A DNA stretch of 40,431 bases from Paludibacteraceae bacterium (GTDB lineage: Bacteria; Bacteroidota; Bacteroidia; Bacteroidales; Paludibacteraceae): the NCBI GenBank assembly GCA_017417025.1, contig JAFPZY010000050.1, forward strand, positions 1-40,431, in the 5' to 3' direction. This document shows, piece after piece, positions 19,410 through 23,980 of this stretch (position 1 is its first letter; each line of letters begins with the position of its first letter). Below the pieces are notes generated by a model, which did no database searches, was not told the origin of the DNA, and saw only the letters and a list, made by a program, of their open reading frames with translations. The position numbers and the translations under genes are program-made.

Positions 19410-19460
19410 AATACTATCCCTAATACGTGTCGGGCGCAACGTTTATCGCCTACTCTTTGT

Positions 19461-19479
19461 CGGATTTTCGGCATTCTCC
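19461..19479 (-). repeat. Possible third copy of the leader repeat (partial)
   Basis: On the coding strand GGAGAATGCCGAAAATCCG resembles the first half of copies 1 and 2. It again lies in the leader of a cluster gene. Confidence 0.35.
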
Positions 19480-19630
19480 GCTAATATTGTTTATTTTTTG
19501 TTGGTGATGTTCTTGTTTAGTCCTCGCTCTTATCTTGGTTGTCACTATGTTGCATATATTTGTTTCAAGTGTTCTAAAAGTTATGTTGTCAGGAGATGAT
19601 CCCGTGATGATACTGTTTTTAACTCCACTT

Positions 19631-21429: not shown

Positions 21430-22689
21430 TCACTCCTCTGGTAAAACTCGGGCTAAGGAGTCGTACAATTGGTCATTCAAGTTGAAATATGAGAAATATG
21501 CCTGCATGAATTCTTCATGCAAAACGGGATCTTTGATTGATTGCTCCGTCCTCTTGAAATTTTCTCTCAGACCTCCATCATAGTCTCGGGCTTCTTTCAG
21601 AGTCTTAATTTCTCCGCGTTTGACGGCTCGGCGGATGGCTTTATGGCGTGCCAAATGGATGGAAGCCGCTTTGCTACGGACAGATTCATTAGGAGAAGGG
21701 GTATTCGCATTGAGAGCCAATGAATCAACAAGGCTTTTTAGCGAATCGAGAAGGTACTGCCGTTCCGCATTTTGCATACGGAGCGAATCGAGAAGGTGCT
21801 GCCGTTCCGCGTTTTGCATACGCAGCGAATCCATATCGGCAGAAAGGCTCTTCTCCTGCTCGCTATGCCTGAGTTCTGCTTGTCGGTATTCGGCATACAT
21901 ACCCCATCCCGCAAGACATAGTACTGCCACCAACAGAAGCGACGCCGGTAACCATATACGCACTCTGTCTATTCTACGGATAGCCCGTAACACCTGCGCA
22001 CAGGAAGAATACCGATCAGCAGAGTTAGTCCGCGTACACCGACGAGCGATACATCTATAGCGATGCGGAAACAGGAGATTGATGATTTTGCCGACCGAAT
22101 AAATATCCGCGCGGCTGTCAATAGGCATACCCGCCAACTGCTCTGGTGCAATAAAAGCCATCGAACCGGCGGGCTGCTTGAACGTGACATAATCATCCGT
22201 ATCAGACACACCAAAATCAATCAGTTTGACCGTAGAGCCGTTGCGGGTGATGAGGATATTGGTTGGTTTGATGTCGCGGTGAATAATCTGGCGCTCATGC
22301 AAAAAAGACAGCGCATCAAGTAGTTGCTTTAAGATGCGTCGGCGGATAGCGGCAGATGGTTTCGTCTCAAGAAACTGATCCAGCGTAATGCCATCAATAT
22401 ACTCCATTTGGATATACCAACCGATAGCATCCATATGCCCGAAATCCAACAGACGGACGATATTCGGATGATCCACAGCCACTCCAATAGAAAACTCCTT
22501 GCGAAGCAGTTCGATGTGCGGTGTGGACTCACGATAAGGCTCTGCCAAGGCTTTGAGCACATACTTGCGTCCGAAACGGGTTGCTACATATAGTGCGTTG
22601 TGCCCTTCCGGAGACAGCAATTCCGGCTCTGACCATACATCAGAGAAATCCGCCGACAGAGGCGATATGATAAATGAAGAATCAGTCAT
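21430..22689 (-). CDS. Membrane-anchored Hanks-type Ser/Thr protein kinase
   Basis: About 419 residues from the ATG at 22689; a TTG six bases earlier is less likely. The kinase domain spans about 18-240 in the frame counted from that TTG. The ATP-anchoring Lys is in YVLKAL (48), the catalytic loop is HRDIKPTN (139-146), the DFG motif is at 160-162 and the APE motif at 183-185. A glycine-rich loop is poorly formed. A membrane helix (about 248-266) separates it from a periplasmic coiled coil with two perfect-register 14-residue repeats (DSLRMQNAERQHLL and DSLRMQNAERQYLL). A helical C-terminus follows. The layout suggests that a periplasmic sensor region controls a cytosolic kinase. Confidence 0.88.
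   Translation of the reverse strand: MTDSSFIISPLSADFSDVWSEPELLSPEGHNALYVATRFGRKYVLKALAEPYRESTPHIELLRKEFSIGVAVDHPNIVRLLDFGHMDAIGWYIQMEYIDGITLDQFLETKPSAAIRRRILKQLLDALSFLHERQIIHRDIKPTNILITRNGSTVKLIDFGVSDTDDYVTFKQPAGSMAFIAPEQLAGMPIDSRADIYSVGKIINLLFPHRYRCIARRCTRTNSADRYSSCAQVLRAIRRIDRVRIWLPASLLLVAVLCLAGWGMYAEYRQAELRHSEQEKSLSADMDSLRMQNAERQHLLDSLRMQNAERQYLLDSLKSLVDSLALNANTPSPNESVRSKAASIHLARHKAIRRAVKRGEIKTLKEARDYDGGLRENFKRTEQSIKDPVLHEEFMQAYFSYFNLNDQLYDSLARVLPEE
21741..21824. repeat. Two 42-bp tandem repeats inside the kinase gene
   Basis: Units 21741-21782 and 21783-21824 differ at four positions; a partial third begins GCGAATC at 21825. The repeats encode the coiled-coil repeats, so copy-number change would lengthen the periplasmic stalk in frame. 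Confidence 0.8.
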
Positions 22690-22709
22690 TGCCAAACAAT
22701 TTTATGATG

Positions 22710-22759: not shown

Positions 22760-22815
22760 CGATTTTTCTTGTCTCGGTCATCTCCCTGTCTTCTCCCGCT
22801 CATCGGTCGGTTGGA
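22760..22815. repeat. Dispersed repeat, copy D
   Basis: GCGATTTTTCTTGTCTCGGT begins this copy, and nearly the same string begins copy E at about 23786. It lies 3' of the AbiF-type gene. With copy E it brackets the AbiF-RNA module as direct repeats. Confidence 0.65.
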
Positions 22816-22877: not shown

Positions 22878-23579
22878 TTATTTGTCTTCGTTACTTTGTA
22901 CAATCTTCTTGCAAACGGCTTGCACGTGGTCGAGACCATAAAGCAACGCACGGCTGTCTATTCCCATCCACATAAAGAGAGTTTGGATTTTCTGATATTC
23001 ATTCAATATGTATGAGGTATCTACAGACACGGAATCATGCGTAAAACAAATTGGCTCATGGTGGGCAATTCGATTACGCAGCGTATTAACCTTATCCAAC
23101 TCGTTGAAGATGTATGTGTTGTTGCAGTTAAACTCAGCAGAGGAACGTGGTTTATTGGGAAATACCTTGAGTAAGCATTTACCACTTGCGCGGTATTGTA
23201 CGTTCGCAAACATATATTTCCATGTGCCCATATTCAGTGCTGACAGCAATTTGGAATGTTTGTATGTTCCGTCGTGCATCAATTTGTCGTACGCCTTCTG
23301 TATTTGCGACCTTGATTCATTCATTTTAGGATTGTCAAAGATACCTCCCGGCATGATAGCGTCACGCAACCATTCATTGCCAAAATGGGCAATCATCTGT
23401 TTGTCGATAGCATTGCGAAGTGCGACCTCGAAACAACTAACGACCGTGAACACTTCCTGCGAAAGGTGAAGATTTTCCCTGTACAGAGTCATCGCTTTGC
23501 TGGTATTCCCTCCACACGCAGCAAGGTATCTTCCCATTCTTTCGGGTGACATTATTGTTTCAAAATCGGCGTATTTCAT
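22878..23579 (-). CDS. AbiF/AbiD-type (Abi_2) abortive-infection HEPN protein
   Basis: 233 residues. The N-terminal pattern SPERMGRYLAACGGN...AMTLYRENLHLSQEV and EVALRNAID (51-59), the central WLRDAI and MGTWKYMF, and the C-terminal LRNRIAHHEPI (167-177) follow the Abi_2 family in order. RNRIAH at 168-173 is a HEPN RX4H motif, the likely RNase active site; R55 and H65 form a second RN...H pair. Abi_2 proteins cause growth arrest or abortive infection. AbiF members are known to be paired with a conserved non-coding RNA acting as antitoxin, and are considered relatives of the Cas13 ancestor. A structured RNA with its own promoter lies head to head at 23607-23743. No good consensus promoter for this gene itself was found. 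Confidence 0.85.
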   Translation of the reverse strand: MKYADFETIMSPERMGRYLAACGGNTSKAMTLYRENLHLSQEVFTVVSCFEVALRNAIDKQMIAHFGNEWLRDAIMPGGIFDNPKMNESRSQIQKAYDKLMHDGTYKHSKLLSALNMGTWKYMFANVQYRASGKCLLKVFPNKPRSSAEFNCNNTYIFNELDKVNTLRNRIAHHEPICFTHDSVSVDTSYILNEYQKIQTLFMWMGIDSRALLYGLDHVQAVCKKIVQSNEDK

Positions 23580-23606
23580 TAAAAATATTATTTTTTCGTC
23601 AAATTA

Positions 23607-23638
23607 TTTGGTAGTTACAAAAAAATGTAGTACCTTTG
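23607..23638 (+). promoter_or_regulatory. Perfect promoter of the AbiF-linked RNA
   Basis: TTTG (23607-23610), exactly 20 nt, TACCTTTG (23631-23638). No ORF with a plausible start follows for over 400 bp. It is divergent from the AbiF-type gene, whose ATG is only 28 bp away. Confidence 0.8.
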
Positions 23639-23644
23639 CGCTCG

Positions 23645-23693
23645 GAATTCCCGGTAGTCCCTGACGCAAGTCAAACTATCGGGTGTCGTTTTT
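23645..23693 (+). ncRNA. Candidate RNA antitoxin: GNRA hairpin RNA next to the AbiF-type gene
   Basis: Starting a few bases after the promoter, CCCGGTAGT (23650-23658) pairs with ACTATCGGG (23675-23683) in nine pairs, one of them G-U. Inside it, after an asymmetric CCC/A internal loop, TGAC (23662-23665) pairs with GTCA (23670-23673) across a GCAA tetraloop. The sequence TGTCGTTTTT follows, giving a T5 end at 23689-23693. A second weak hairpin, GCCA...TGGC with six T (23722-23743), offers an alternative 3' end, so the RNA is about 50 or 100 nt. The structure and the head-to-head position suggest the known AbiF-associated RNA. Expression and pairing with the protein are inferred. Confidence 0.65.
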
Positions 23694-23721
23694 ATAGTAC
23701 CCTTCCTGTTTTTCTGAAACC

Positions 23722-23743
23722 GCCAAAATTTATGGCATTTTTT
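23722..23743 (+). terminator. Weak hairpin with T6 downstream of the AbiF-linked RNA
   Basis: GCCA (23722-23725), 7-nt loop, TGGC (23733-23736), then A and six T. Possibly the end of a longer form of the RNA. Confidence 0.4.
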
Positions 23744-23786: not shown

Positions 23787-23980
23787 CGATTTTCTTGTCT
23801 CGGTTGTCTCTCGGTCATCTCTCGGTATTGTCTCGGCCTTAAGGAGTTCTTATTTCGCATGGCTCAAACGATTATTTCTATGTTCGCCCTGCGAACTCGC
23901 ACGGCACACTTACTCCTTCGAGTGTCCAATGGATATTCGAAGGTGCGCCTTAATCGCTTCACGGTCATCGGTCGGTATTG
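23787..23980. repeat. Dispersed repeat, copy E (longest form)
   Basis: Begins TTTTCTTGTCTCGGTTGTC, repeats TCTCGGTCATC and TCTCGGTATTG units, then has CTTAAGGAGTTCTTATTTCG and CTGCGAACTCGC as in copy C. It ends with a further CGGTCATCGGTCGGTATTG. It fills most of the gap between the RNA and the gene at 24058; 23981-24057 shows nothing recognisable. Confidence 0.65.

What the first reader, a model, noticed from the sequence alone, without database searches (positions are those of the whole stretch)
22878..23743. AbiF-type HEPN toxin head to head with a small structured RNA: candidate RNA-antitoxin system
Seen: the gene at 22878-23579 has the Abi_2 order of motifs and a HEPN RX4H (RNRIAH). Its start is 28 bp from a perfect divergent promoter (TTTG, 20 nt, TACCTTTG) that drives no ORF. 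The expected RNA begins with a 9-bp stem, an asymmetric CCC/A loop, a 4-bp stem and a GCAA tetraloop, then a T5. Known: AbiF genes are stably linked to a conserved non-coding RNA that acts as antitoxin, and AbiF is proposed as the Cas13 ancestor. Inference: this is a Bacteroidales member of that class, with RNA on the opposite strand.
Basis: partly seen in the sequence, partly recalled or inferred. Interest (0 to 1): 0.9.

Follow-up and report, generated by a model that had tools for sequence, protein, structure and literature searches.

The report
Divergent RNA beside an Abi_2 RNase
A small bacterial protein that looks like an RNA-cutting toxin is paired with a strongly conserved, so far unclassified small RNA made from the opposite DNA strand, which most likely holds the protein in check.

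Summary
Window 22878-23579(-) encodes a 233-aa Abi_2 HEPN protein; a Bacteroidetes promoter (23607-23638, +) leads into a ~50-nt hairpin RNA (model match 23640-23694) on the other strand.

The RNA is conserved: in 34 aligned relatives 96.8% of base-pair cells are paired and 8 of 13 pairs change on both sides (0 of 500 shuffles as high on both). Of 51 distinct full-length homologues found by protein, 42 carry it within 400 nt: 36 upstream divergent, 5 downstream convergent, 1 downstream same-strand. Five of 6 held-out plasmid-record homologues fetched have it.

It is not Rfam's abiF RNA RF03085, which in 9 of 12 loci read precedes a longer AbiF gene or pieces of one on the same strand. Loci that keep the RNA with a broken or missing toxin are common, one differing from its relative by a toxin-sized gap.

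Best explanation: a type III-like RNA antitoxin silencing a HEPN RNase, with a new RNA family and a divergent layout. In many relatives, not the window, a toxin-facing promoter would make the mRNA leader antisense to the RNA. Toxicity, expression and binding are untested.

The parts
22878..23579 (-). Abi_2-family HEPN protein, 233 aa, predicted RNase toxin
   Evidence: Pfam Abi_2 35.9 bits vs cut-off 25.6; PADLOC PD-T4-5 1.3e-12 and AbiD 9.8e-8; profile match to five RF03085-linked AbiF proteins plus one plasmid Abi protein, hhalign probability 92.3, E 5.5e-7; dN/dS 0.15 against L006
23061..23078 (-). HEPN catalytic motif RNRIAH (R168-N169-x3-H173)
   Evidence: R and N in 60 of 60 aligned homologues, H in 59 of 60, the exception being a row cut at its contig end
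23607..23638 (+). Bacteroidetes-type promoter TTTG-N20-TACCTTTG, predicted to drive the RNA
   Evidence: TAnnTTTG lies within 45 nt before the RNA model in 36 of 38 loci, 1.9 expected
23640..23694 (+). Hairpin RNA (family here called R1), predicted RNA antitoxin; 5' end probably near 23645 (recalled promoter rule), 3' end in the U tract
   Evidence: R1 covariance model 69 bits (the window row is one of the 34 in the model), only copy found in the held genome at E up to 1; covariation; fold
23650..23683 (+). Outer 9-bp stem, CCC/A asymmetric loop, inner 4-bp stem with GCAA tetraloop
   Evidence: per-pair counts
23689..23693 (+). U tract after the hairpin, probable own terminator
   Evidence: sequence; T-rich end conserved in alignment A1. 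The generic terminator scan did not report it

Best explanation
The locus is a two-gene toxin-antitoxin (probable phage-defence) unit. The Abi_2 protein is a dimeric HEPN ribonuclease toxin (inferred from family). The divergently transcribed R1 hairpin RNA, made from its own promoter and ended by its own U tract (both predicted), folds as shown by covariation and binds the protein to block its RNase site, as AbiFr does for PbAbiF and RCd22 for AbiFCd (inferred by analogy). Loss or dilution of the RNA, for example during phage infection, would free the toxin and stop growth (inferred). In many relatives, but not in the window, a toxin-facing promoter lies beyond the RNA gene, so the toxin mRNA leader would be antisense to the RNA and transcription would collide; this is a likely second layer of control, not the main one.
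For: RNA fold conserved by compensatory change. Linkage: 42 of 51 distinct full-length homologues have R1 within 400 nt. The RNA may lie upstream divergent, downstream convergent or downstream on the same strand, so what matters is the RNA product near the gene, not one cis position. Held-out test: 5 of 6 plasmid-record homologues fetched have R1, none used in the model. RNA type and layout follow the protein tree: 9 changes, the least possible being 8, shuffled mean 29.6. HEPN motif invariant. RNA-direction promoter motif in 36 of 38 loci, toxin-direction motif in 24 of 38, each 1.9 expected. Toxin decays while RNA stays: of the 30 R1 loci fetched from 60 places in the family search, 9 have a full toxin, 5 a broken one, 16 none (2 of the 16 cut near the RNA by contig ends). 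One locus differs from its relative by a toxin-sized gap with the RNA kept (L104 vs L105). The cassette is accessory: none of 11 genus relatives with the neighbouring kinase shows the gene in the up to 1.5 kb held. Paper: AbiFCd toxicity neutralised by RCd22 through direct binding (PMC12373285, abstract and named sections read).
Against: No expression, toxicity or binding data exist here. One full-length homologue (L009, same locus as L060) has no R1 match in its flanks or in its genome, so the pairing is not absolute; it sits on a long branch. R1 does not significantly match RF03085 loci or the other Abi_2-linked RNA by covariance model, so the analogy with PbAbiFr rests on gene linkage and general shape. 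The window's cassette lacks the toxin-facing promoter motif seen in 24 of 38 loci, so how its toxin mRNA starts is unknown. Many solitary RNAs could also mean a function unrelated to the toxin, and gaps in draft genomes may add to their number. No structure model could be made.
Confidence: 0.8

Rival explanations
1. Type I-like antisense control: the RNA acts mainly by pairing with, and colliding with transcription of, the toxin mRNA leader that runs across it.
For: 24 of 38 loci have a toxin-facing TAnnTTTG within 90 nt beyond the RNA, against 1.9 expected, so the mRNA leader there would contain the RNA's complement.
Against: The window and 13 others of the 38 lack that motif. In 5 homologues the RNA is downstream on the opposite strand and in L063 downstream on the same strand, where pairing with the leader is not possible. 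Antisense pairing does not call for compensatory changes within the RNA's own stem or for invariant loop letters.
Confidence: 0.1
2. The RNA is a cofactor, sensor or activator of the HEPN protein (as a step towards crRNA use by Cas13) rather than its inhibitor.
For: The published lineage proposed from AbiF to Cas13 involves RNA bound by the protein (PMC12165695 and PMC12737573, passages read).
Against: Loci with a broken or missing toxin that keep the RNA are common, while an intact toxin of this branch without the RNA was seen once, L009 (L031 could not be judged): the pattern expected of an antitoxin, not an activator. The R1 RNA has no long variable guide-like stretch.
Confidence: 0.06
3. 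The hairpin is only a terminator or a dispersed repeat, and its linkage with Abi_2 is incidental.
For: The hairpin ends in a U tract, and solitary copies exist.
Against: Own promoter motif, invariant internal letters, strong covariation, and a 42 of 51 linkage with held-out confirmation. Single copy found in the own genome.
Confidence: 0.03

Closest known systems
AbiF / AbiFr (PbAbiF, PDB 8vz6) with RF03085 abiF RNA
   Same: HEPN Abi_2-family protein beside a short hairpin RNA with a CCC...GGG closing stem, a pyrimidine-rich internal stretch and a U-rich end; toxic RNase neutralised by the RNA (from papers)
   Different: R1 is not matched by RF03085 nor RF03085 loci by R1 (best E about 1); its gene is on the opposite strand; the protein is ~230 aa against ~300 aa and only remotely alike. 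Of 12 RF03085 loci read, 9 have the AbiF gene or pieces of it just downstream on the same strand and 3 (L072-L074) have none found
AbiFCd / RCd22 of Clostridioides difficile (PMC12373285)
   Same: Toxin neutralised by an adjacent RNA by direct binding; HEPN RNxxxH motif
   Different: RCd22 is ~100 nt with two RF03085 motifs, co-transcribed with the toxin; R1 is a single ~50-nt hairpin with its own divergent promoter
PD-T4-5 and AbiD (PADLOC models)
   Same: Best defence-model matches of the protein (45.6 and 30 bits)
   Different: These are protein models and say nothing of an RNA. That PD-T4-5 acts against phage T4 is recalled
Type III toxin-antitoxin ToxIN
   Same: RNA antitoxin that binds a ribonuclease toxin
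   Different: ToxI is co-transcribed with the toxin (PMC5772629, start of abstract in the search listing); that it is a repeat array and ToxN not a HEPN protein is recalled

Membership tests
Pfam Abi_2 (PF07751) | Score over the curated gathering cut-off | tested here: met
   35.9 bits vs 25.6; Abi_2 matched in 36 of 37 aligned members at E up to 0.01
HEPN RNase | R-N-x3-H motif | tested here: met
   RNRIAH at 168-173; R and N 60 of 60, H 59 of 60
abiF RNA RF03085 | Score over the Rfam gathering cut-off (37 bits) | tested here: not met
   no match in the window region at E up to 10; none in the own genome at E up to 10 with stricter filters
AbiF proper (PbAbiF-like) | Sequence kinship with PbAbiF 8vz6, ~300 aa, RNA gene on the same strand upstream | tested here: not met
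   phmmer none at E up to 10; profile E 0.019; separate branch on the tree; RNA on the opposite strand
Type III-like toxin-antitoxin | Conserved, folded RNA linked to the toxin gene | tested here: met
Type III-like toxin-antitoxin | Protein is toxic and the RNA neutralises it by binding | not testable with these tools
   needs bench work; only indirect support from toxin loss with RNA kept
Type I toxin-antitoxin | RNA pairs with the toxin mRNA | tested here: inconclusive
   toxin-facing promoter motif in 24 of 38 loci but not in the window; 6 homologues with the RNA downstream

The most novel reading that the evidence does not exclude
R1 is a distinct family of trans-acting RNA antitoxins for a separate branch of HEPN Abi_2 toxins, spread by mobile elements over Bacteroidota and into Neisseria. 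Solitary R1 copies that outlive their toxin persist under selection as anti-addiction RNAs, protecting cells from incoming R1-type toxins. Together with RF03085 and a third RNA type found beside another Abi_2 branch, it would show that HEPN toxins changed RNA partners repeatedly before Cas13 arose.
Probability: 0.3. Interest if true: 0.8.

Novelty: new variant of a known kind. Interest (0 to 1): 0.62.

Why it matters
AbiF and its RNA are the proposed root of Cas13 (PMC12165695, PMC12737573, passages). A second RNA family, not matched by the abiF model, paired with a different Abi_2 branch in a divergent layout, with natural toxin-minus RNA-plus loci, gives an independent case for asking how HEPN RNases came to be controlled by structured RNAs. 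It also supplies a covariance model that finds the RNA where Rfam finds none.

Tried and rejected
Rfam: no hit to any family for R1 in the window (the one hit, GNAS-AS1_3 at E 6.5, is elsewhere and looks like chance); nine homologue loci (L042, L039, L064, L158, L194-L198) had no Rfam match at E up to 0.1. R1 against six RF03085 loci and six loci of other Abi_2 RNAs with filters off: best E about 1, so kinship of the RNAs is not shown. Viral contigs: none with the single protein; with the alignment 36 loci, of which R1 was sought in 30 and found in one, L158. Five low-scoring phylum hits without Abi_2 (L096-L100, 31.6-33.3 bits) are about what chance gives over 395 genomes at E 0.01 and were not counted as members; a sixth, L095 (36.8 bits), lies by a toxin piece and was left out of the counts too. 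Direct repeats flanking the cassette were considered as insertion marks; the repeat core occurs 8 times in the genome at up to 2 mismatches and also lies by the kinase in L133, which shows no cassette, so they prove nothing.

Selection biases: alignment A1 was gathered with a text pattern that demands CC at the 5' and GG at the 3' end of the stem and fixes the CTG-type and TCA letters, so the outermost pairs and those letters count for less; the variable stem positions were free. A4 adds rows found by protein or by the R1 model. The 38 promoter loci come from 40 that I picked with the RNA upstream (one too short, one duplicate); they are not independent lineages, and the shuffles kept base make-up only. 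In the linkage count I used the hits with two weak ones dropped (L019 18.6 bits, L038 14.1 bits). Of the 9 full-length ORFs without R1, L031 is cut at its contig end, L009 has none found, and 7 (L023-L029) belong to a branch about 30% identical, six of them with another RNA type and L025 with a different hairpin. On the tree, RNA labels were set by me, four (L148, L149, L153, L154) by eye, and three fragment rows were left out. Of 15 plasmid rows listed (451 records matched) I fetched six.

Fold-based comparison could not be done: the structure tool was busy, then failed, then was switched off.

Full report
What is there. The gene at 22878-23579(-) encodes 233 aa with an Abi_2 match of 35.9 bits against a cut-off of 25.6 and a HEPN RNRIAH motif at residues 168-173. 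Best defence models are PD-T4-5 and AbiD.

The RNA is a real, conserved family. Homologues of the protein were found in 46 of 300 genomes of the window's family, its own included, and at 37 loci in named records, some of them the same contigs. Reading the DNA upstream showed the same hairpin in most close homologues. In 34 distinct sequences (A1), 96.8% of cells are paired against 86.2% in shuffles, 8 of 13 pairs have changes on both sides, and 48 cells show such changes against 13.5; 0 of 500 shuffles reach the observed value on four of five measures and 3 of 500 on the fifth, the number of pair types. Sliding the partner by one to three columns drops pairing to 25-40%. With 39 more diverse sequences (A4) the double-change cells are 71 against 22.0 (0 of 500); pairs with a double change are 9, reached by 2 of 500. 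Conserved outside the stem are the C-C/T-CTG internal stretch and the T-rich end. A covariance model (R1) scores the window RNA, itself one of its rows, at 69 bits, the only copy found in its genome, which is held at 89% completeness.

Linkage. Among the loci found by protein there are 51 distinct full-length Abi_2 ORFs. R1 lies within 400 nt of 42: 36 upstream on the opposite strand, 5 downstream on the opposite strand, 1 downstream on the same strand. The 9 without are L031 (contig end), L009 (no R1 in its flanks; its genome G225 is not among the R1-positive genomes), and 7 of another branch. As a held-out test, homologues on plasmid-collection records were sought by protein (451 records, 15 listed); six were fetched and five have R1 upstream on the opposite strand at 32.7-64.1 bits: Chryseobacterium, Hymenobacter, Riemerella, Phocaeicola and a Neisseria gonorrhoeae record; Rhodobacter (29% identity) has none. 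Of 30 viral-contig homologues searched, one has it (L158, 35% identity; the others are mostly at 30% or less). So R1 goes with one branch of Abi_2, not with all.

Other branches have other RNAs. RF03085 is over its cut-off in 25 of 200 family genomes. Of 12 such loci fetched, 9 have the AbiF gene or pieces of one just downstream on the same strand, and 3 (L072-L074) none found, so RF03085 too seems to occur alone. PbAbiF (PDB 8vz6) belongs with these proteins (E 2.7e-146 with L075). A third branch (RNRIFH motif, about 30% identical to the window) carries another hairpin, CCCGG...TTCCTCTCCC...CCGGG, on the same strand in some genomes and divergent in others; Rfam has no match at E up to 1 in the loci L023-L029. 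On a protein tree of 65 rows, RNA type and layout need 9 changes, the minimum being 8, shuffled mean 29.6 (quick tree, several long branches). R1 does not significantly match the other RNAs by model; their likeness in shape is an impression only.

Promoters. In 38 distinct loci, TAnnTTTG lies within 45 nt before the RNA model in 36 and in the toxin direction within 90 nt beyond the RNA in 24, each against 1.9 expected. Where present, the second promoter would make a toxin mRNA whose leader is antisense to the whole RNA. The window lacks it, so this cannot be essential.

Toxin lost, RNA kept. Over the same 300 genomes, 51 have R1 at E up to 0.1 and 46 have the protein; 28 have both, 23 R1 only, 18 protein only. 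Of the 23, 15 score 50 bits or more, 3 between 40 and 50, and 5 under 34, which may be chance. Of the 18, most belong to the other branches; G225 is L009. Of the 30 R1 loci fetched (of 60 places), 9 have a full toxin, 5 pieces of one, 16 none; 2 of the 16 (L114, L130) are cut too near the RNA to tell. A stub of the toxin start is clear in L121, which matches 22 of 24 first bases against a best of 19 in 300 shuffles; L109 and L119 seem by eye to keep about four codons but do not pass that test, and no other solitary locus gave a clear stub. In one genus, L105 has an intact toxin, L107 a frame-broken one, and L104 and L111 none: L104 and L105 are collinear at 94-99% on both sides of a stretch of about 670 bp that holds nearly all of the toxin gene and is absent from L104, with the RNA kept. 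Which state is ancestral was not tested. Elsewhere in the phylum the picture repeats: of 16 strong R1 loci other than the window's own, 3 have a full toxin, 4 a broken one, 9 none found, at least two of these (L082, L086) with short flanks. Incomplete assemblies can inflate the toxin-less class. The pattern is what an antitoxin predicts. Similarity of solitary RNAs against their flanks (RNA 94-100%, flanks 53-98% in nine chosen pairs) hints at continued selection, but the pairs are not all the same locus and recent common origin is not excluded.

Mobility. The kinase next door has orthologues in genus relatives, and none of the 11 fetched besides the window's own shows the Abi_2 gene in the up to 1.5 kb held. 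In the loci held, the six neighbouring proteins tested matched only the window's own loci. Homologues occur on plasmids. The protein is under purifying selection: dN/dS 0.15, 0.03 and 0.04 in the three pairs where dS could be computed, of six tried.

Mechanism. Shown: a folded, linked RNA with its own promoter motif beside a HEPN protein with an intact motif. Inferred: that the RNA is expressed, that the protein is a toxic RNase, that the RNA binds and inhibits it, and that phage infection is the trigger. The analogy is with AbiFCd/RCd22, where toxicity, neutralisation in cis and trans, and binding were shown (PMC12373285: abstract, sections 6, 7, 11, 12 and part 1 of 13 read), and with PbAbiF/AbiFr (seen through PMC12737573 passages and that discussion; the primary paper was not read). 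Changing position and strand of the RNA gene among homologues argues for a trans-acting RNA.

Novelty. In the library held, searches on AbiF, Abi_2, the abiF motif, PD-T4-5 and divergent RNA antitoxins showed no paper describing this RNA among the rows listed, judging by titles, abstract starts and the passages read. A catalogue of 3161 candidate RNAs from human microbiomes (PMC8040213, passages read) has no word beginning with Abi in its main text; its supplementary tables could not be checked and may hold it unlabelled. Most subscription papers are not held. I therefore call it a new variant of a known kind: same principle, different RNA family, protein branch and layout.

Noticed in passing
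L023, L024, L026-L029, L144-L154: A third hairpin RNA type beside another Abi_2 branch (RNRIFH motif), same-strand leader in some genomes and divergent in others; Rfam had no match in L023-L029 at E up to 1.
   Followed up: partly
L025:1480-2289: A more distant Abi_2 gene with yet another divergent hairpin after a TATCTTTG promoter (CCTCT core), not modelled.
   Followed up: no
L072-L074: RF03085 abiF RNAs without any AbiF gene found in the locus held, a parallel to the solitary R1 copies.
   Followed up: no
L197: A 39% identical homologue with an R1-type RNA in a Neisseria gonorrhoeae record, with no feature listed in the collection's incomplete table.
   Followed up: partly
window 19447-19481 (-): Rfam RF02914 DUF805b cis-regulatory RNA, 40.4 bits.
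   Followed up: no
window 22764-22798 and 23790-23824: Imperfect direct repeats (TTTTCTTGTCTCGGT...) flank the Abi_2/RNA cassette; the repeat core occurs 8 times in the genome at up to 2 mismatches.
   Followed up: partly
window 21430-22695 (-): Ser/Thr protein kinase-like gene next to the cassette, with matches at E up to 1e-30 in 63 of 121 genus genomes searched.
   Followed up: no
L009 / L060: Full-length homologue without any R1 RNA found; HEPN motif intact but the following HEPICF is NEPIIF.
   Followed up: partly
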